A stretch of 47,874 bases of DNA from assembly GCA_903842575.1 (NCBI GenBank), contig CAIMMM010000163.1, forward strand, positions 1 through 47,874, written 5' to 3'. This DNA comes from an uncultured Bacteroidota bacterium. GTDB lineage: Bacteria > Bacteroidota > Bacteroidia > Flavobacteriales > Flavobacteriaceae. The notes under the pieces are model-generated. The model searched no databases. It worked only from the letters and a program-made list of their open reading frames with translations, and had not been told where the DNA came from. The position numbers and the translations under genes were made by a program. Positions 38,454 to 47,874 of this stretch are shown here, in pieces (position 1 is the stretch's first letter; each line of letters starts with the position of its first letter).

Positions 38454-39763
38454 TTATTTTTCCCTGATATAAATATCTATTGGAACTCCTGAAAAATCCC
38501 AGTTTTCCCGAATTTTATTTTCTAAGAAACGCTTGTACGCTTCTTGAACATACTGTGGTAAATTGGCAAAAAACACAAACTGTGGTGTTGGTGTTGGCAA
38601 TTGCATACAATATTTAATTTTTACATATTTCCCTTTTAACGCTGGTGGCGGATGATTTTCAATTAGCTTCAACATAAAATCGTTGAACTTGGAAGTTGGG
38701 ATTCTTTGTTTTCTATTTTCAAAAACTTGAACCGTTGCTTCTAATGCTTTTAATAATCTTTGTTTGGTTAATGCCGAAACAAAAAGAATAGGCACATCGA
38801 TAAAAGGTTTTAGTTCTTCCCGGATTTTTGCTTCATAATCTCGGGTTGACATGGTGTCTTTCTCCACCAAATCCCATTTGTTTACCAAGATTACAACTCC
38901 TTTTCTATTCTTTTCGGCCAACCAAAAATACTTTGGTCCTGTCCTTCAAAACCACGGGTGGCATCGATTATTAAAATACAAATATCGGCGTGTTCAATAG
39001 CACGAACGGATCGCATCACCGAATAAAACTCCAAATCTTCTTTCACTTTGGCTTTTCGACGAATTCCTGCAGTATCTACCAAATTAAATTCGAAACCAAA
39101 ACGGTCAAATTTTGTGTCAATAGCATCGCGAGTGGTTCCTGCAATATCGGTAACCATAAATCTTTCTTTACCAATTAAAGCGTTGATAAAACTGGATTTT
39201 CCGGCGTTGGGCCTTCCTACTACGGCGAAACGTGGCAATTCTATTTCCTCTTGTGTTGGTTCTGGTTTTATTGGAAAAGCATCGATTAATGCATCCAATA
39301 AATCGCCGGTTCCACTTCCAGAAATACTGGCAAACGTATAAAATTCGCCTAATCCTAAATTGTAAAATTCCAAAGCATCTTTTTCGCGCATGGCGTTATC
39401 TACTTTGTTTACAGCTAATAAAACAGGTTTTTTAACTTTACGCAACATCTTGGCAACGGTATCGTCCATTGGCGTTATACCTTCTTCAACATCCACCACA
39501 AAAATAATCACATCGGCTTCATCAATGGCGAGTTCCACTTGTTTACGAATTTCACCTTCAAAAACATCATCGGAACCTTTAATGTAACCTCCTGTATCAA
39601 TTACGGAAAACTCTTTCCCATTCCATTCGCTTTTCCCATAGTTTCTATCGCGAGTTACTCCCGAAATAGAATCTACAATAGCTTCGCGTCTTTTAATCAA
39701 TCTGTTAAAAAGAGTTGATTTTCCAACGTTTGGTCTTCCTACTATGGCTACAATATTGTTCAT
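38454..39763 (-). CDS. der: Ribosome-assembly GTPase Der (EngA), with apparent one-base frameshift
   Basis: Double-GTPase of about 436 residues needed for 50S ribosome assembly. The first G domain has [14 protein letters not shown] and DTGGYI, the second [14 protein letters not shown] and [11 protein letters not shown], followed by NKWDLVEKD and the KH-like C-terminal domain. The reading frame breaks at 38924-38928. On the minus strand there are five T where six would restore the expected [11 protein letters not shown]. As it stands, frame one ends after 290 codons (the last nine out of frame) and the rest would need a TTG start at 38921. Der is essential in studied bacteria, so a missing base in the sequence is the most likely cause. 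Confidence 0.92.
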
Positions 39764-41423: not shown

Positions 41424-41467
41424 AGTAGCGGGAACAGGAATCGAACCTGTGACCTTCGGGTTGTGAG
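41424..41467 (-). pseudogene. 3' fragment of a tRNA gene, probable attachment-site remnant
   Basis: Read on the minus strand, the sequence contains an anticodon loop CTCACAA, the 3' anticodon-stem strand CCCGA, variable loop AGGTC, a perfect T arm ACAGG-TTCGATT-CCTGT, the acceptor strand TCCCGCT and discriminator A. The 5' half is missing. Upstream of the loop there is no matching anticodon stem, D arm or AGCGGGA acceptor strand. This is what the chromosomal side of a tRNA-integrated element looks like. The intact tRNA would then lie at the other end of the element, beyond the window. The loop would read anticodon CAC, but the original identity cannot be fixed. Confidence 0.75.
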
Positions 41468-41526
41468 TTGGATTTTTTTCAAAATTTTAACTCCCTTTAT
41501 ACCGCTTTTTTTCTAATGCCGCGCTG

Positions 41527-41548
41527 AATCGTGTACGAAATCGTGTAC
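41527..41548. repeat. Two direct AATCGTGTAC repeats next to the tRNA fragment
   Basis: AATCGTGTAC occurs at 41527-41536 and 41539-41548, 12 bp apart. They could be recombinase arm sites, or the degraded end of a gene (minus-strand frame VHDFVHDSARH then stop). Confidence 0.5.
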
Positions 41549-41576
41549 TGTTAATAATGCCACAAAGGTAGTTTTT

Positions 41577-42007: not shown

Positions 42008-43051
42008 ATGAAATGGGAATCCAAAATTATGAAGCATAAAGGGGAAAGCCGAATTGCTGTTTACTTTGAAAAAAATCAGGAATTGATTGACCGTATTAAG
42101 AGAATTGAAGGTTCTAGATGGAGTCAGCAAATGAGCGTTTGGCATTTGCCTGATACACCTGAAAACAGAATGCGATTTCAACTACCCTCTTTATTAGACA
42201 GTATGCCGAGCACTGAAGGTATGGAACAAATGGAGCGATTTAAAAAATGGTTGCATTCCAAACGATATAGCGAAAGCACTATAAAAACCTATGTTGATGC
42301 TTTGAAGTCATTCTTGGTTTTTTACAGAGGAAAACCTATAGAAGAAATTTCAAATGAGGATGTGATTAATTATAACAATGAGTATATTTTAAAGAACAAA
42401 TTATCGGCTTCGTATCAGAATCAGATTGTGAATGCTGTGAAGCTTTTTTTTAGCACCATTCAAAATAGAAAAATAGACATTGATTTGATTCATCGACCAA
42501 AACGCGCGAAAGTTTTACCGAATGTTTTGAGCAAGGAAGAAGTAAAGGCTATTTTGGAGGCATTAACGAATGTTAAACACAAAACAATGTTAAGCCTTAT
42601 TTATGCTTGTGGTCTTCGTAGAAGTGAGCTTTTAAATTTAACATTTAAGGATATTCAAAGTGATAGAGGCTTGTTGTTTATAAAACAATCTAAAGGAAAA
42701 AAAGATAGAATAGTACCCATTAGCGACAAAATAATTGAAATGTTGAGAGCCTATTATAAGCAATATTTACCTAAAACGTGGCTATTTGAAGGGCAACAAG
42801 AAAATACAAAATATTCGGACAGAAGTTTAGAAGAAGTTCTAAAAAAAAGTATTAGATTAGCTGAAATTAAAAAACCCGTAAGTTTGCATTGGCTTCGGCA
42901 TAGTTATGCTACGCATTTGCTTGAAAGTGGTACCGATTTAAGATATATTCAAGAACTATTGGGACATAGCAGTAGCAAAACTACTGAGATTTACACCCAT
43001 GTAAGCACAAAAAATATACAAAACATTAAATCTCCTTTTGATGATTTGTAA
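42008..43051 (+). CDS. Tyrosine recombinase, probable integrase of the cassette array
   Basis: Site-specific recombinase of 347 residues. The catalytic set is complete: Arg204 in GLRRSELLNL, Lys229, His294 and Arg297 in LHWLRHSYATHLL, His320 in LLGHSSSKTTEIYTHV and the nucleophile Tyr329. Residues about 72-165 are the SAM-like core-binding domain. Residues 1-65 are an added domain (GESRIAVYFEKNQELIDRI, RWSQQMSVWHLP) that recalls HARP-type nucleic-acid-binding motifs. The end IKSPFDDL resembles the RSPLDAL end of IntI integrases, but the roughly 16-residue IntI-specific insertion before the HxxR box is not seen (only KQYLPKTWLFEG). The gene points towards the cassettes, as in reverse integrons such as that of Treponema. 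Confidence 0.9.
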   Translation: MKWESKIMKHKGESRIAVYFEKNQELIDRIKRIEGSRWSQQMSVWHLPDTPENRMRFQLPSLLDSMPSTEGMEQMERFKKWLHSKRYSESTIKTYVDALKSFLVFYRGKPIEEISNEDVINYNNEYILKNKLSASYQNQIVNAVKLFFSTIQNRKIDIDLIHRPKRAKVLPNVLSKEEVKAILEALTNVKHKTMLSLIYACGLRRSELLNLTFKDIQSDRGLLFIKQSKGKKDRIVPISDKIIEMLRAYYKQYLPKTWLFEGQQENTKYSDRSLEEVLKKSIRLAEIKKPVSLHWLRHSYATHLLESGTDLRYIQELLGHSSSKTTEIYTHVSTKNIQNIKSPFDDL

Positions 43052-43071
43052 AAAAATAATACTCAACTAGA

Positions 43072-43147
43072 GTTACGTATATACAGCCAAAAAAGATAGA
43101 TATACTCAGTTTTTGTCTTAGAAACTGAGCATATATACAAGTTACCA
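43072..43147 (+). promoter_or_regulatory. Candidate attI-like site between recombinase and first cassette
   Basis: GTTAC occurs at 43072 and again at 43141, where the first cassette begins. GTATATACAGCC and CATATATACAAG repeat an ATATAC core. A hairpin CTCAGTTT/AAACTGAG (43105-43112 and 43122-43129) lies between them and could instead serve as the recombinase terminator. Position argues for attI, but no consensus exists to test it. Confidence 0.45.
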
Positions 43148-43909
43148 GTAATTTTATGGAAAAAACTACAAAGACAAAACACTCATTGATTTTAACAACA
43201 ATCGTCTGTTGCGTTTATCTTTTGTTGACAATATTTTACCATCATATTGACAAGTATTTATCTGGAATTCTATACTTGTTTTTGACAATTCTAATTCCAA
43301 TAGCATTTATAACAATTGTTATTTTTGAAATTAAGGGAATCATTAAAATTATTCTCAATAGAAAGTATTTGAATTTTAAACTTTGTTTACCAACAATAGT
43401 TTGCTCAATAACACTTTTGTACACTATTTTTTGTCCATATAGAATTGACTCTGAAAATCTTGAAAGCGAAGTAGAATTTAGAGCCTGTTATGAAGGAACT
43501 CAAAATCAAGCATACATTCTTTTCCGAAAAGACAAAACATTTGAACTGAATTGGACTGGTGTTTTTGGATATAACAAATGGTGGACAGGAAAGTGGGAGA
43601 AAAATGGAGATATTTTAACGCTTAAATATGACAATGAAAAGACTGAGCAACTAGGAGACAAAATTTTGATTTCAAAAGGTTATTTAAATCCAATTGGAAA
43701 ATCATTTGACAGAAAGAAATATCCATACCCAATGTTTTATCTTGGATATTGTAGAGGTGAAAATTAAAACGTTATAAAAACTACTGGTAACAGCCGTTTG
43801 GCGCAATAGCTGCAATTGCTTAATCATGATGTCGATTTTCCGCTGGAAAATCTTATCTTAGTAGAAAATAATTCGTTCCGCAGTCGCTACTGCGCCAAGC
43901 GGCGGAACG
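43142..43909 (+). mobile_element. Integron-like cassette 1 (768 bp)
   Basis: The unit runs from TTACCAGTA after the G at 43141 to the G at 43909. Its first ten bases including the G (GTTACCAGTA) are the exact reverse complement of TACTGGTAAC, the left end of its own attC-like site. It holds one gene in the same direction, starting 14 bp inside. Confidence 0.8.
43156..43767 (+). CDS. Cassette-encoded membrane protein of unknown function
   Basis: Protein of 203 residues. Three membrane helices lie at about 10-26, 36-60 and 75-94. A C-terminal domain of about 100 residues reads EFRACYEGTQNQAYILFRKD, then NKWWTGKWEKNGDILTLKYD. This strand-rich segment resembles small lipocalin-like domains seen in other Bacteroidota proteins, though the match is weak. 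The ATG lies only 15 bp after the recombination point, so expression probably depends on a promoter upstream in the recombinase or attI-like region. Function unknown. Confidence 0.8.
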   Translation: MEKTTKTKHSLILTTIVCCVYLLLTIFYHHIDKYLSGILYLFLTILIPIAFITIVIFEIKGIIKIILNRKYLNFKLCLPTIVCSITLLYTIFCPYRIDSENLESEVEFRACYEGTQNQAYILFRKDKTFELNWTGVFGYNKWWTGKWEKNGDILTLKYDNEKTEQLGDKILISKGYLNPIGKSFDRKKYPYPMFYLGYCRGEN

Positions 43910-43915
43910 TTAGCA
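43785..43915 (+). repeat. attC-like recombination site 1 (131 bp)
   Basis: The left end TGGTAAC-A is followed by an 18-nt arm (43793-43810, GCCGTTTGGCGCAATAGC). The complementary arm is at 43886-43903, then GGAAC and the crossover point G^TTAGCA (43909-43915). The arms pair except at arm positions 5 and 14. A perfect inner hairpin GATTTTCC-GCT-GGAAAATC lies at 43834-43852. Length equals that of the two other sites although the sequence differs. Confidence 0.8.
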
Positions 43916-44618
43916 GATATTATAAAAAAACACTATGAAATCACTATTTTCGGTTTTATTAATTATCCTTATAAATCAGACAATCCTGTCGCAAAGTGAT
44001 TTAACTGATTTATCAAAAATTAAATTGTGTGAAACTAAAATTTCAGATTTTGAAGAACCTTTTACTATTGTTCCAGTTAAAGAATTAAATGAATGCTCAA
44101 ATGGAATTACAGCCTTAAAAATTCCTGGATACCAAAACAAAAGTGGTTTTGCTTTTTCTTCATACGAAAACGTTACATTTCAAATTCATTTAGCAGATAG
44201 TACTGTTTATAAAATAATTTTGAATAAGGATTTTAAAGGTTATCTAACAGATGGAAAATATATAGATTTGACAACTCTTAAAGCAAAAGATATCAAATAT
44301 AAAGATTCTTTATATTGGTTTAAAGAAGGTTGTTCAGAATATTTAGGATTAGGATATAAAAATTTTAAGTTTCATATTAAACAAGATAAATCAATTTTAT
44401 CTGAAAATACAATTAATCAAAAATTATACAGCGAAAAAAATATCGAAATTGTAACAATAGAAAGTAATTGTTATAAACGAGAATAATAACATCTGCTAAC
44501 AGCCGTTTCAAGAAACTGCGAAATATCCGGTAAATTCATATTTTCCTTTCGCTAGTTTTTTTATCTTAGCCGAGAGTACGCAGATACGAAGTTCGCTGCT
44601 TCTTGAAGCGGCGGAACG
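43910..44618 (+). mobile_element. Integron-like cassette 2 (709 bp)
   Basis: The unit runs from TTAGCAGAT to the G at 44618. GTTAGCAGAT at its start is the exact reverse complement of ATCTGCTAAC at the left end of its attC-like site. It holds one gene in the same direction. Confidence 0.8.
43935..44486 (+). CDS. Cassette-encoded secreted protein of unknown function
   Basis: Protein of 183 residues with an N-terminal signal peptide (about 1-19, LFSVLLIILINQTILSQ) and no further membrane segment. The mature part is rich in Lys, Ile and Thr, with four Cys, and shows no recognised domain. HLADSTVYKIILNKDFKGYL and YWFKEGCSEYLGLGYKNFKF are noticeable phrases. It starts 25 bp after the cassette boundary and ends 7 bp before the attC-like site, the compact arrangement expected of a one-gene cassette. 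Confidence 0.8.
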   Translation: MKSLFSVLLIILINQTILSQSDLTDLSKIKLCETKISDFEEPFTIVPVKELNECSNGITALKIPGYQNKSGFAFSSYENVTFQIHLADSTVYKIILNKDFKGYLTDGKYIDLTTLKAKDIKYKDSLYWFKEGCSEYLGLGYKNFKFHIKQDKSILSENTINQKLYSEKNIEIVTIESNCYKRE

Positions 44619-44624
44619 TTATAG
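44494..44624 (+). repeat. attC-like recombination site 2 (131 bp)
   Basis: TGCTAAC-A is followed by a 21-nt arm (44502-44522, starting GCCGTTTCAAGAA). The inverted partner is at 44592-44612, then GGAAC and G^TTATAG (44618-44624). 18 of 21 arm positions pair, with breaks at positions 5, 14 and 16. It is nearly identical to site 3 in the centre (TTTCCTTTCGCTAG and CTTAGCCGAGAGTACGCAG). Confidence 0.82.
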
Positions 44625-45074
44625 CTGATGGCTCAGTTGGAAAATTCACAAATGAATTTACTCAGGAAAAACGAATTGTGAAACCGAAAATTGAACTAAA
44701 TAGATTTTTTAAAGTATGCCAAAATAGGAGTTTTAAAATCGCCAGTTTTAAAAGTAATTTATCGAGCGAAGCTCGATTTTTTTTTACTTATTTAGTGAAT
44801 TTTTGAAAAAGTTGAAATTGAAAAAAAATTGACCACTCGCCTACTTAAATAAGTTGGATTAAATAGATTTTTGAATGTTTTAGGTTGATTTGGATTGGAA
44901 TATTGGAATACGATAATTTTGTCTGCTTATGTTTGTGTTTCGCCACCAGCCATAACAGCCGTTTCAAGAAACTGCGAAATATGTAGTAAAATTCTATTTT
45001 CCTTTCGCTAGTTTTTTTATCTTAGCCGAGAGTACGCAGTTACGAAGTTCGCAGCTTCTTGAAGCGGCGGAACG
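44619..45074 (+). mobile_element. Integron-like cassette 3 (456 bp), no recognisable gene
   Basis: The unit runs from TTATAGCTGATGG to the G at 45074. Its start (GTTATAGCTGATGG) matches the reverse complement of the left end of its attC-like site at 12 of 14 positions. The 330 bp before the site contain no ATG-started frame longer than 17 codons on the plus strand, and only an intrinsic terminator is recognisable. It may be a decayed gene or encode an RNA. Confidence 0.75.
44761..44785 (+). terminator. Intrinsic terminator inside cassette 3
   Basis: ATCGAGC-GAA-GCTCGAT is a perfect 7-bp stem with a stable GAA loop, followed by nine T. There is no coding gene before it in the cassette, so it could end a read-through transcript from cassettes 1-2 or a small RNA. 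Confidence 0.8.
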
Positions 45075-45080
45075 TTGTAC
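44950..45080 (+). repeat. attC-like recombination site 3 (131 bp)
   Basis: CCATAAC-A is followed by a 21-nt arm (44958-44978). The inverted partner is at 45048-45068, then GGAAC and G^TTGTAC (45074-45080). 19 of 21 arm positions pair, with breaks at 5 and 14, the same places as in sites 1 and 2. Confidence 0.82.
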
Positions 45081-45142
45081 CCAATGCTATTTGACGACCT
45101 CGTAAAATAGAAAACTTCAAAAAAAATCTAATTAAAAAATTA

Positions 45143-45183
45143 TTTGTCTGAACTTTTTTTATAAATTTGTCAAAACTTGACAA
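45143..45183 (+). promoter_or_regulatory. Promoter with operator palindrome before the controller gene
   Basis: TAAATTTG (45162-45169) fits the -7 element, with TTTG at 45143-45146 a somewhat close -33 (15 bp). The perfect palindrome TTGTCAA-AAC-TTGACAA (45167-45183) overlaps the -7 element and the expected transcription start, the position of an autoregulatory operator. Confidence 0.6.
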
Positions 45184-45202
45184 GTCTATAAATAAAAGTC
45201 AT

Positions 45203-45529
45203 ATGAAAGAAAGTTTTGGTAGTTATATAAAAAAGTTACGTGTTGAAAATAATTTGACACTAACTCAGCTTGCTGCTAAATTAGATTTAGATTCTGCAAA
45301 TTTGAGTAAAATTGAAAATGGCAAACGAGATTTTGATGAAAAAAGATTAGTATTATTATCTGATACTTTCAAGATCGAAATTGACGAATTAAAAAAAGAA
45401 TATTTTGGCGATTTCATTGCTCGAAAAATATATGATTCTAATTGTTCAGAAGAGATATTACTTGTAGCAGAAGAAAAAGTAAAATATCTACGTTCAATAA
45501 ATACTAAACAAATAAATTTAGATTTATGA
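45203..45529 (+). CDS. XRE-family HTH protein, probable R-M controller
   Basis: Protein of 108 residues from the ATG at 45203. A TTG-started frame from 45167 would run through the operator and is rejected. An XRE/Cro-type HTH spans about residues 5-65: FGSYIKKLRVENNLTLTQLA, then SANLSKIENGKRDFDEKRL. A C-terminal helical tail of about 40 residues follows. The ATGA overlap with the methyltransferase gene (4 bp) shows translational coupling. Similar HTH proteins precede many type II methyltransferases and time their expression, and the palindrome in its promoter supports autoregulation. The precise role is inferred from context. Confidence 0.85.
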   Translation: MKESFGSYIKKLRVENNLTLTQLAAKLDLDSANLSKIENGKRDFDEKRLVLLSDTFKIEIDELKKEYFGDFIARKIYDSNCSEEILLVAEEKVKYLRSINTKQINLDL

Positions 45530-46536
45530 GAAACGAAATAAATTACATTGACCTTTTTTCAGGTGCTGGTGGAATGTCATTAGGTTTTGACCAAGTTGGT
45601 TTTAATAATATTTTTTCAATAGATATTGAACCAAGATTTTGCGAAACTTATAAAACAAATTTCCCAAAACATAATCTTATCCAAAAAGATATTTCCAAAC
45701 TTTCCAATGAAGAAATAAAGTTATTAATCGGAAATCAAATTATTGATGTAATAATTGGCGGTCCACCTTGCCAAGGTTTCAGTATGGCTGGAAATATCGG
45801 AAGAAAATTTATTGATGATTCAAGAAATCAATTATTTAGAGAATTTGCTAGAATAGTTGAAATAGTTCAACCTAGTTATTTTGTTATGGAAAATGTTGCT
45901 AGACTTTTCACACACAATAAAGGAGAAACAAAAAAAGAAATTATTGCGCTTTTCAAAAAAATGAATTACAACGTTGATTGCAAAGTTGTAAATACAGCAG
46001 ATTTTGGAATTCCTCAAGTTAGAAATAGAGTTTTATTTATTGGAAATAGAATTTCCAATAATATTGTTTTTCCAACAAAAACAATTGATAAACCGATTTC
46101 AATTAAAGAAGCTATTGACAAACTTCCAAAACTTAAATCTGGAGAAAAATCAAAAATTCCTAATCATATTTCTATGAAACATTCAGAACAAATGCTTGAA
46201 AAAATGAAATATGTTTCAGATGGTGGAAATAGGAACGAAATTCCAGAATTAATAAGACCAAAAAGTGGTGATGTTAGAAAATATATAAGATACAAGAGTA
46301 CAGAACCTGCGGTTTGTGTAACTGGTGATATGAGAAAAATATTTCATTATTCACAAAACCGAGCATTGACAGTTAGAGAATTAGCAACGCTACAAACTTT
46401 TCCGTTAGATTTTATATTTAAAGGTTCTACAATTTCTCAACAACAACAAGTTGGAAATTCAGTTCCTCCAATTTTAGCAAAGGAAATTGCATTAACTATT
46501 AAAAAAATGATGAAAAATGATGAACAAATTTCCTAA
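45526..46536 (+). CDS. DNA (cytosine-5) methyltransferase
   Basis: C5 methyltransferase of 336 residues with all main motifs in order: motif I IDLFSGAGGMSLGF (8-21), IV GGPPCQGFSMAG with nucleophile Cys82, VI MENV (121-124), VIII DFGIPQVRNRVLFIG (Q164, R166, R168) and X QQQVGNSVPPILAKEI near the C terminus. The target-recognition region between VIII and IX is short (about 175-270), so the recognition sequence cannot be told. It overlaps the HTH gene by 4 bp and the adenine methyltransferase gene by 20 bp. Confidence 0.95.
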   Translation: MRNEINYIDLFSGAGGMSLGFDQVGFNNIFSIDIEPRFCETYKTNFPKHNLIQKDISKLSNEEIKLLIGNQIIDVIIGGPPCQGFSMAGNIGRKFIDDSRNQLFREFARIVEIVQPSYFVMENVARLFTHNKGETKKEIIALFKKMNYNVDCKVVNTADFGIPQVRNRVLFIGNRISNNIVFPTKTIDKPISIKEAIDKLPKLKSGEKSKIPNHISMKHSEQMLEKMKYVSDGGNRNEIPELIRPKSGDVRKYIRYKSTEPAVCVTGDMRKIFHYSQNRALTVRELATLQTFPLDFIFKGSTISQQQQVGNSVPPILAKEIALTIKKMMKNDEQIS

Positions 46537-47569
46537 AATAAATTTCATTGGCAATAAAGAAAAAATTGCTAAATGGATTACAGATTATTTTCCAAAAGAT
46601 GCCGAAAGTGTTTTTGATGCTTTTTCAGGTGGAAGTTCTGTAAGTTATCAGTCTAAAATGAAAGGATTAAAAGTAATTTCTAATGATATTTTAGAAATAA
46701 ACTATTTACTTTCTAAAGCTTTAATTGAAAATAATTCAACAAAACTTTCTTATGAAGATGTAGAATTAATATTTTCGGGAGAACCGAAAGAAGGGTTTAT
46801 GTTCAATCAATATTCAGAAGTTTATTTTTTTCCAAATGAATGTAAAGAACTTGATTTATATAGAGAAAATATAGAAAAATTAGATTCAGAGTATAAAAAA
46901 GCTTTAGCTTTAATTTTAATGCGTCGAGCAATGATTCGCAAAATGCCTTATTCTCGTTTTAATATCAATTGGGATAAAATCGTACAATTAAGAGACGAAA
47001 AGTACAGCTATGAAAAATATAAAAGAAAACGAGCTTATCACAATCAATCATTTAAATCGCATTTTATTGAAAACGTAAGTGAATACAACAGAGCAATTTT
47101 TGATAACCTTAAAGATAATTTATCAATAAATGATGATGTTTTTAATGTGCTTGATTCTGTTGAAGCTGATATAATTTATTTAGATCCTCCATACACAGGA
47201 ACAATGAATAACTATTTTGGCTTTTATGGTATGCTAGATGAGTATATTGTTGGGAAAAAATTGCAACCTTTTGAAAATAATTTTATTGATAAAAAAACTT
47301 CAATTGAATTGTTTGATAAATTATTTTCAAAATTAAGCAATTTCAAATATTGGTATTTAAGCTATAACAACTCATCGTATCCAACCAAAGAGCAACTTAT
47401 TGAACTTTTAGAGAAATATTCAAATAATGTTAAATTAGTTGAAAAACCACACGTCTATAAAATAACTGGTAAAGAGAATAAAAAGATAAATTTAGAATAT
47501 TTATTTATTGTAGAAAATACTAATTTAACATCCAAAAAAAAACATACTTATGAGCGAGCAGAATTATGA
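46517..47569 (+). CDS. DNA (adenine-N6) methyltransferase, D12 class
   Basis: Methyltransferase of 350 residues (an adjacent ATG would give 349). The order is that of the Dam/D12 class: motif X INFIGNKEKIAKWI at 8-21, motif I VFDAFSGGSSVSYQSKM at 32-48, an intervening recognition region, and motif IV IIYLDPPYTG with DPPY at 223-226. It overlaps both neighbours by 20 bp. A pair of m5C and m6A enzymes in one operon is known for type IIS systems with asymmetric targets such as HphI, where each enzyme protects one strand. Confidence 0.93.
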   Translation: MMNKFPKINFIGNKEKIAKWITDYFPKDAESVFDAFSGGSSVSYQSKMKGLKVISNDILEINYLLSKALIENNSTKLSYEDVELIFSGEPKEGFMFNQYSEVYFFPNECKELDLYRENIEKLDSEYKKALALILMRRAMIRKMPYSRFNINWDKIVQLRDEKYSYEKYKRKRAYHNQSFKSHFIENVSEYNRAIFDNLKDNLSINDDVFNVLDSVEADIIYLDPPYTGTMNNYFGFYGMLDEYIVGKKLQPFENNFIDKKTSIELFDKLFSKLSNFKYWYLSYNNSSYPTKEQLIELLEKYSNNVKLVEKPHVYKITGKENKKINLEYLFIVENTNLTSKKKHTYERAEL

Positions 47570-47874
47570 GGAATATTGGAGCATTACAAATGCTTTTACT
47601 GATTATAACGGTGATGGTTTTTTATCTACTTTAAGAATTTCTGTTGAGTTTATTGATGAATTTAAAAGTGAAGAGTACAGCTCTGAAAAATACACAAGGC
47701 TTCAGTTGAGAATTCAAAATATTATTGGTATTGATTTAATTTCAATCAGAAAAGCAATTAATCAATTAGTGAAAATGGGGTTTATAAATTCTTTTTTGGC
47801 TTCTTATCAAAAAGAATCATTAGAATATTTGAATGCCAAAACAAATCGAAAAAGAAATACATTACTTTCAAAAA
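47550..47874 (+). CDS. Partial gene after the methyltransferases, possible restriction endonuclease
   Basis: Open frame of 108 codons from the ATG at 47550, cut by the window end. It overlaps the adenine methyltransferase gene by 20 bp. The visible part begins SEQNYEEYWSITNAFTDYNG, followed by a helical region (RLQLRIQNIIGIDLISIRKA) and a Lys/Arg-rich stretch. No nuclease motif (PD-ExK, HNH, GIY-YIG) falls in this part. Only its place as the last gene in a controller and two-methyltransferase operon suggests an endonuclease. This is inference. Confidence 0.6.
   Translation, partial: MSEQNYEEYWSITNAFTDYNGDGFLSTLRISVEFIDEFKSEEYSSEKYTRLQLRIQNIIGIDLISIRKAINQLVKMGFINSFLASYQKESLEYLNAKTNRKRNTLLSK

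What the first reader, a model, noticed from the sequence alone, without database searches (positions are those of the whole stretch)
43142..47874. Integron-like cassette array with three 131-bp attC-like sites in a flavobacterial background
Four head-to-tail units follow a tyrosine recombinase. Three are closed by sites of identical length (131 bp) with the layout NNNTAAC-A-arm-centre-arm-GGAAC-G^TT. Genes all point the same way, with the site at their 3' end. This is the organisation of integron cassettes. The bases after GTT(A/G) do not follow the classical GTTRRRY consensus, the sites are longer than the common 60-bp type, and the recombinase is not a standard IntI. Integron detection tools tuned to the classical pattern could miss it, so it may be a variant system.
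Basis: partly seen in the sequence, partly recalled or inferred. Interest (0 to 1): 0.95.

Follow-up and report, generated by a model that had tools for sequence, protein, structure and literature searches.

The report
Hidden gene-capture arrays in Flavobacterium
Flavobacterium and related bacteria carry chains of small gene units behind a recombinase that lacks the part defining known integron enzymes; copies of the same unit sit between different neighbours, cut at one exact point, so the units likely move as folded DNA circles in a gene-capture system that seems to have been overlooked.

Summary
Three 131-bp sites close head-to-tail cassettes behind a tyrosine recombinase. A model of such sites matches 127 of 150 genomes of the genus, Flavobacterium; one array has 54 sites.

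The decisive evidence is at the cassette ends. In 251 cassettes the 12 bases after G^TT pair with the end of the same cassette, not with the neighbour's; only position +8 does not pair (A in 250 of 251). This suggests selection on the closed form. Closed sites fold better on the bottom strand in 244 of 247. All 26 near-identical cassette pairs have unrelated flanks. Window cassette 2 recurs in another species behind an attI-like site, homology starting at the G of G^TT.

The recombinase lacks the ~41-aa IntI insert, groups apart from IntI and has a weakly HARP-like N-terminal domain. It works like an integron but fails the IntI test and the GTTRRRY consensus (4 of 251). No report turned up in the open library. 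No bench test was made.

The parts
42008..43051 (+). Tyrosine recombinase (347 aa), proposed cassette integrase; lacks the IntI-specific insert
   Evidence: PF00589 E 6e-42, PF13495 E 4e-18; TIGR02249 209.6 bits under cut-off 265, NF040815 225.7 over 220; insert absent
42008..42187 (+). N-terminal domain, residues 1-60, weakly HARP/DUF5710-like; lies before the part that aligns with IntI
   Evidence: IntI model aligns from residue 76; family profile A6: best PDB match SMARCAL1 HARP 4o66 E 0.001; Pfam HARP in 4 of 34 and DUF5710 in 13 of 34 members at E<=0.1; fold search ranks 4o66 first but E 0.62
43052..43141 (+). attI-like region, ending at the cut G^TT (43141^43142)
   Evidence: Motif [TA]ATA[AT]NNNAGTT at 43132-43143; within 200 bp after the recombinase stop in 63 of 74 loci (window included), median cut 102 nt after the stop, 1 of 74 in the upstream control
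43142..43909 (+). Cassette 1 with attC1 43785-43915; ORF 43156-43767 (203 aa), weak Lipocalin_4-like
   Evidence: Own ends pair GTTACCAGTA / TACTGGTAAC; PF13648 E 6.5e-4, 21 bits, below its cut-off 22.4
43910..44618 (+). Cassette 2 with attC2 44494-44624; ORF 43935-44486 (183 aa, no known family)
   Evidence: Own ends pair GTTAGCAGAT / ATCTGCTAAC; cassette body 90% identical over 600 bp in G082, directly behind an attI-like site, homology starting at the G of G^TT
44619..45074 (+). Cassette 3 with attC3 44950-45080; no convincing gene
   Evidence: Own ends pair imperfectly, AT.GCTG.T after GTT; the only sense ORF over 60 aa listed there starts inside the upstream site
45075..47874 (+). Cassette 4, cut by the contig end: restriction-modification system (control protein 45203-45529, C5 methylase 45526-46536, D12-type methylase 46517-47569, type II restriction enzyme 47550 onward)
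   Evidence: Pfam and PADLOC matches

Best explanation
The locus is an integron-like gene-capture platform: its linked tyrosine recombinase, which lacks the IntI-specific insert, is predicted to join cassettes at G^TT between an attI-like site about 100 nt behind its gene and long hairpin-forming attC sites, likely through single-stranded, circular cassettes. Shown by sequence: head-to-tail same-strand cassettes; a conserved attI-like motif; covarying site stems; own-end pairing of each cassette over GTT+12 with one fixed mismatch; near-identical cassettes between different neighbours with the break at G^TT. Inferred: that the closed circle is the selected form, that the bottom strand is the substrate, that this recombinase (not host XerC/D) does the joining. 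More tentative: the N-terminal HARP-like domain and the one-sided bulge (GGAAC on the top, GTTCC on the bottom strand) take over the recognition of folded DNA that the I2 insert and extrahelical bases give in IntI integrons.
For: Own-end pairing in 251 cassettes: 7.53 of 9 matches against 3.69 with shuffled partners (largest of 1000 shuffle means 3.95) and 3.70 between the two arms flanking one array site (279 sites); pairing per position 249, 246, 242, 242, 249, 242, 181, 1, 239, 221, 224, 203 of 251, then background from +13. Second set: 98 cassettes in genome contigs records, +8 is A in 98 and paired in 0; 40 of these from records not titled Flavobacterium; 35 are attI-to-first-site cassettes. 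Mobility: 26 of 26 near-identical pairs have both flanks unrelated; case between species. Linkage: 106 of 106 site matches on the recombinase strand, 105 downstream; 0 site matches in 20 real IntI loci. attI-like motif 63 of 74 against 1. Stems: 14 of 14 predicted pairs keep pairing through changes on both sides. Folding: bottom strand more stable in 244 of 247. Genes: longest ORF sense in 220, antisense in 6, none of 60 aa in 25, of 251.
Against: No experiment. Sites occur in more genus genomes (127 of 150) than the recombinase at E<=1e-45 (84 of 150), so at least 43 have sites without a close recombinase (decay, draft gaps, divergence, or another enzyme). 9 of 46 loci with >=1.5 kb behind the recombinase lack a model match, and 6 lack any cassette by either method. 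4 de novo cassettes and 1 model match lie upstream. In G022 the three weak matches lie on the strand opposite to the recombinase. The HARP likeness is not supported by fold comparison (E 0.62; 4o66 not among the rows shown). The L-stem T.G pair (207 of 279) is a mismatch on the bottom strand, opposite in sense to the R-box mark.
Confidence: 0.87

Rival explanations
1. It is an ordinary integron (or an array without integrase) of the IntI family that standard tools simply score low.
For: Architecture, cut triplet, site length (like VCR) and cassette orientation are integron-like; NCBI names some relatives 'site-specific tyrosine recombinase/integron integrase'; Foldseek's best match is IntI4 2a3v, closely followed by XerA.
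Against: IntI-specific insert absent in all 11 recombinases of the window's clade that were aligned and present in 8 of 8 IntI; separate groups, 100/99 and 99/90; below the TIGR02249 cut-off; the site model finds nothing in 20 IntI loci; GTTRRRY in 4 of 251.
Confidence: 0.08
2. The cassettes are moved by host XerC/XerD on double-stranded sites, as in dif-module plasmids (recalled); the linked recombinase is incidental.
For: The genome has two further Xer-like proteins (C77, C89; label by similarity only); arrays exist without the linked recombinase.
Against: 105 of 106 site matches lie downstream of this recombinase family; the conserved attI-like motif sits at a fixed distance from its stop; free sequence variation with kept own-end pairing points to structure, not a dif-type sequence.
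Confidence: 0.04
3. The sites are static 3' repeats (terminators or REP-like elements) copied by homologous recombination; cassettes do not move site-specifically.
For: Sites are strong hairpins behind genes and alike within an array.
Against: Own-end pairing across a whole cassette, unrelated flanks in 26 of 26 near-identical pairs, and a cassette shared between species behind an attI-like site in one and an attC in the other have no cause under this view.
Confidence: 0.01

Closest known systems
Sedentary chromosomal integrons (Vibrio cholerae superintegron type: VchIntIA/IntI4 with VCR sites)
   Same: Integrase gene, adjacent attI, long head-to-tail same-strand array, cut at G^TT, long site with stem, unpaired spacer and large terminal part, folded bottom strand favoured
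   Different: Recombinase lacks the I2 insert that reads extrahelical bases; R box is 15 bp with a fixed non-paired +8 position, not the 7-bp GTTRRRY (7 bp recalled); array and recombinase gene usually on one strand
Archaeal XerA / simple Xer recombinases (5hxy, 4a8e)
   Same: Closest solved sequences (E 8e-40); catalytic region without the insert; NF040815 match
   Different: Added N-terminal domain; linked to cassette arrays rather than one dif site
CTXphi integration by XerCD through a folded single strand (described in PMC4792948, passages)
   Same: Recombination through a hairpin made of single-stranded DNA without an I2 domain
   Different: CTXphi encodes no integrase of its own; no cassette array
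Archaeal integrons (PMC9668308, passages)
   Same: Integron outside the classical bacterial set
   Different: Those IntIs carry the IntI-specific domain

Membership tests
Integron (IntI-based) | Integrase with the IntI-specific additional domain (I2, patch III) | tested here: not met
   23 residues where IntI4 has 65; 71-72 letters against 113 in the aligned stretch, 11 recombinases of the window's clade against 8 IntI
Integron (IntI-based) | Integrase falls in the intI clade | tested here: not met
   Separate groups in a 53-row tree, midpoint-rooted; the 16 Xer-like rows come from Flavobacteriales only
Integron (IntI-based) | attI next to the integrase | tested here: met
   Conserved motif ending in G^TT, 63 of 74 loci, control 1; by sequence only
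Integron (IntI-based) | attC: imperfect inverted repeat at the cassette end, R/L boxes, G^TT | tested here: met
   Covarying stem, own-end R box, break at G^TT
Integron (IntI-based) | R box consensus RYYYAAC / GTTRRRY | tested here: not met
   4 of 251 heads, 8 of 279 tails, both in 0 of 279 sites
Integron (IntI-based) | Head-to-tail mostly single-gene cassettes in one orientation | tested here: met
   Longest ORF in sense in 220 of 251; there it covers a median 91% of the cassette; absence of promoters not shown
Integron (IntI-based) | Extrahelical bases giving bottom-strand choice | tested here: inconclusive
   Strand asymmetry present in silico (244 of 247), apparently from a bulge and wobble/mismatch pairs; extrahelical bases as in VCR were not identified
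Integron (IntI-based) | Excision circles and attC x attI recombination | not testable with these tools
   Bench only
Integron (IntI-based) | Pc promoter and SOS-regulated integrase | not tested
   -
HARP domain (PF07443) | Profile match of the window protein over the curated cut-off | tested here: not met
   No HARP match for the window's domain; 4 of 34 relatives match at E<=0.1, best 2e-4, their bits not shown; L254 12.8 bits against 25
HARP domain (PF07443) | HARP fold | tested here: inconclusive
   4o66 best PDB profile match E 0.001, Foldseek rank 1 but E 0.62, not in the rows shown

The most novel reading that the evidence does not exclude
A second, I2-less lineage of integrons: Bacteroidota capture genes through folded single-stranded attC hairpins without the IntI-specific domain, reading the hairpin by a HARP-like N-terminal domain and an asymmetric bulge, with a 15-bp own-end box and an invariant wobble mark. 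It is either the pre-insert sister branch of all IntI integrons or an independent invention of the integron.
Probability: 0.55. Interest if true: 0.94.

Novelty: new variant of a known kind. Interest (0 to 1): 0.9.

Why it matters
In its survey of RefSeq genomes IntegronFinder 2.0 names one complete integron in Bacteroidetes proper, besides those of Chlorobi and Ignavibacteriae (PMC9024848, passages). The sites here occur in 127 of 150 genomes of the genus Flavobacterium and the recombinase in 43 of 148 genomes of the order, so a large reservoir of mobile genes, restriction systems among them, seems unseen by tools that require the IntI domain. PMC4792948 (passages) puts as a paradox how the I2 domain and attC sites could arise before each other; a working attC array without I2 would make that question testable.

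Tried and rejected
Classical attC comparison inside the phylum: in 20 IntI loci my detector found 28 candidate sites and 4 candidate cassettes, 3 usable, too few for a profile. Viral contigs: 20 pattern matches, none a relative. Rfam gave no match in the window at the gathering threshold. tRNA search gave 0. N-terminal domain alone: the window's sequence gave no PDB match at E<=10 and no Pfam match under E 0.1. The full-length model gives low TM (about 0.40-0.43) to its best Xer/IntI matches, probably because of domain placement; only the ranking was used. Promoter idea: TAnnTT[AT]G lies in sense in 96 of 254 sites, 9 antisense, 25.6 in shuffles, but the sites are related by descent, so this is a lead only. 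The 10 truncated site rows were dropped, and 5 of 284 sites lacked AAC or GTT at the expected place. In G030 (L047) no repeat array was seen beside the related recombinase. Composition, tandem-repeat and promoter/terminator scans of the window were not run.

Literature: 7 paper searches and passages of 10 papers; no paper was read whole. By title and start of abstract, none of the rows listed describes chromosomal integrons of Flavobacterium; several searches held more papers than were listed. Integron integrases in the Bacteroidetes/Chlorobi group as such are in print (PMC2426708, passages). The library holds open-licence PMC papers only, no preprints, so a description elsewhere is possible.
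Full report
What is there. A tyrosine recombinase (42008-43051) is followed by four head-to-tail units. Three end in sites of 131 bp each. The patterns TAACAGCCGTTT and GGCGGAACGTT, one mismatch allowed, each occur three times in the window, against means of 0.28 and 0.34 in shuffles. Unit 1 encodes a weak lipocalin-like protein, unit 2 a protein of no known family, unit 3 no convincing gene, and unit 4 a restriction-modification system cut by the contig end. The same genome has 11 more sites on contig C57, where a type IV restriction enzyme, a cytosine methylase with an NgoFVII-like enzyme, and a Fic protein are among the genes. The genus is Flavobacterium: contig C23 of genome G007, same genus, and the named contig NZ_SMFM01000005.1 (F. 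caseinilyticum) have the same length and the same recombinase position.

How common. A covariance model built from 17 sites matches 127 of 150 genus genomes at E<=1e-3, 107 of the 124 good ones; at most 22 candidates were scored per genome. On 39 sources (652 kb) it gave 294 matches at E<=0.01. Sites counted without truncated ones: G133 54, G162 42, G143 40 (over five contigs), G060 34, G147 29, G011 20. Across the family, 26 of 199 genomes match at E<=1e-6, two of them in the genus. The recombinase is found at E<=1e-45 in 84 of 150 genus genomes, and a profile of it at E<=1e-60 in 43 of 148 genomes of the order, 27 of 62 genera, own genome included. The protein search returned 7998 of 8000 scored candidates at E<=1e-40, so the true number is unknown but large.

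Cassette ends. Each cassette begins after G^TT and ends before the AAC of its own site. In 251 cassettes the first nine bases after GTT match the reverse complement of the same cassette's tail in 7.53 positions on average; shuffled partners give 3.69 (largest of 1000 means 3.95), and the two arms that flank one site in the array give 3.70 (279 sites). Pairing runs over positions +1 to +12 and falls to background at +13. Position +8 is not paired (1 of 251 is): the right arm is A in 250, the left arm C in 215. On the top strand A opposite C is a mismatch and on the bottom strand a G.T wobble. All four bases occur at +2, +3, +4 and +6, so structure, not sequence, is kept. A second set of 98 cassettes from genome contigs records shows the same (A at +8 in 98, paired in 0), including 40 from records not titled Flavobacterium (many of these are MAGs of unnamed genus) and 35 that start at an attI-like site. 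Ends that pair only within a cassette, and not across the array junction, are expected if the closed cassette is what selection sees. That step is inference.

Sites. The inner stem covaries: all 14 predicted pairs have sequences in which both sides changed and the pair is kept, in 150 sites. Between R box and inner stem lie A on the left and mostly GGAAC on the right, a one-sided bulge. With DNA parameters the closed site folds better on the bottom strand in 244 of 247 cases (mean -31.3 against -27.3 kcal/mol), and of the outer 12 bases 11.3 pair with the other arm in the closed bottom strand against 3.3 in the array. The L-stem has a T.G pair on the top strand in 207 of 279 sites, which is a mismatch on the bottom strand. 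GTTRRRY is met by 4 of 251 heads and RYYYAAC by 8 of 279 tails.

Movement. Among 247 cassettes, 15 families hold near-identical copies, all within one genome each. All 26 pairs have unrelated flanks on both sides, with ungapped identity 0.24 to 0.43; 22 of the 26 are at least 99% identical in the body. The gene of window cassette 2 occurs in 5 of 150 genus genomes, its own included. In G082 the cassette body is 90% identical over 600 bp, starting at the G of G^TT and ending in the left arm of the site. There it follows TATAAACGAG^TT, which fits the attI-like motif, while in the window it follows an attC. No close recombinase lies in the 18 kb around it (best tblastn E 0.79) and the site model finds no site in that locus, so it looks like a decayed platform.

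Recombinase. Positions R204, K229 and K232, H294, R297 and Y329 are invariant and H320 at least 90% conserved in 52 aligned members; that these are the catalytic ones is recalled. Against IntI4 (2a3v) the alignment leaves 23 residues where IntI has 65; in a multiple alignment 11 recombinases of the window's clade have 71-72 letters where 8 IntI have 113. Not all of the 11 were seen beside an array. The window's protein scores 209.6 bits with TIGR02249 (cut-off 265) and 225.7 with NF040815 (cut-off 220). In a midpoint-rooted tree of 53 rows the 15 IntI form one group (100/99), the 22 relatives of the window's recombinase another (99/90), and 16 Xer-like proteins of Flavobacteriales (label by similarity only) a third. 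Real IntI are present elsewhere in the phylum (46 of 148 genomes over the cut-off, 45 of them outside the class), and the site model finds nothing in 20 such loci (306 kb, E<=0.1).

Linkage. 41 of 80 loci have a downstream match, 37 of the 46 with at least 1.5 kb downstream; a detector that asks only for own-end pairing with an unpaired A at +8 finds 87 cassettes downstream, 4 upstream, 0 on the reverse strand of the downstream part and 0 in shuffled sequence, and raises 37 to 40 of 46. The attI-like motif lies within 200 bp after the stop in 63 of 74 loci, 1 in the upstream control, with the cut at a median of 102 nt.

N-terminal domain. Residues 1-60 are predicted as two strands, helix, two strands, helix. 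A profile of 34 members has the SMARCAL1 HARP domain (4o66) as its only good PDB match, E 0.001, next 0.31; Pfam HARP matches 4 and DUF5710 13 of 34 at E<=0.1. Fold comparison does not settle it. Fusing HARP domains to other SNF2 proteins confers annealing helicase activity (PMC4035279, passages). A role in holding folded DNA is a guess built on this.

Reading. It works like an integron and is not an IntI integron by the tests above. PMC4792948 (passages) states the I2/attC origin paradox; [quoted passage not shown] An I2-less array with folded-site signatures speaks to both. Whether the clade is the sister of IntI or an independent case needs a wider tree.

Noticed in passing
window 38454-39763 (-): The Der/EngA-like GTPase (name by eye) reads as two overlapping ORFs (155 and 290 aa), a frameshift or assembly error.
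   Followed up: no
window 41425-41560: By eye a tRNA 3'-end-like stretch beside the recombinase; ARAGORN finds no tRNA. Possibly an old attachment scar.
   Followed up: partly
attC sites, 55-59 nt before G^TT: A sense-strand TAnnTT[AT]G motif, like a Bacteroidota -7 promoter box (recalled), in 96 of 254 sites against 9 antisense; it most often starts 55-59 nt before G^TT, with another peak at 34. It could drive the next cassette.
   Followed up: partly
attI-like regions, e.g. L209, L210: By eye, the ~90 nt before the cut hold direct and inverted repeats whose letters differ between species but agree within one; attI may also covary.
   Followed up: no
L229, L263: Contigs labelled Ignavibacteria and Azoarcus carry close relatives of the recombinase, probably mis-binned.
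   Followed up: no
G000:C36, G004:C1, G017:C27, G036:C34: Short stretches matching only the C-terminal part of the recombinase, perhaps remnants of decayed platforms.
   Followed up: no
L053:12354-14640 (G037, another family of the order): Different, about 130-bp attC-like repeats behind a related recombinase, not seen by the model.
   Followed up: partly
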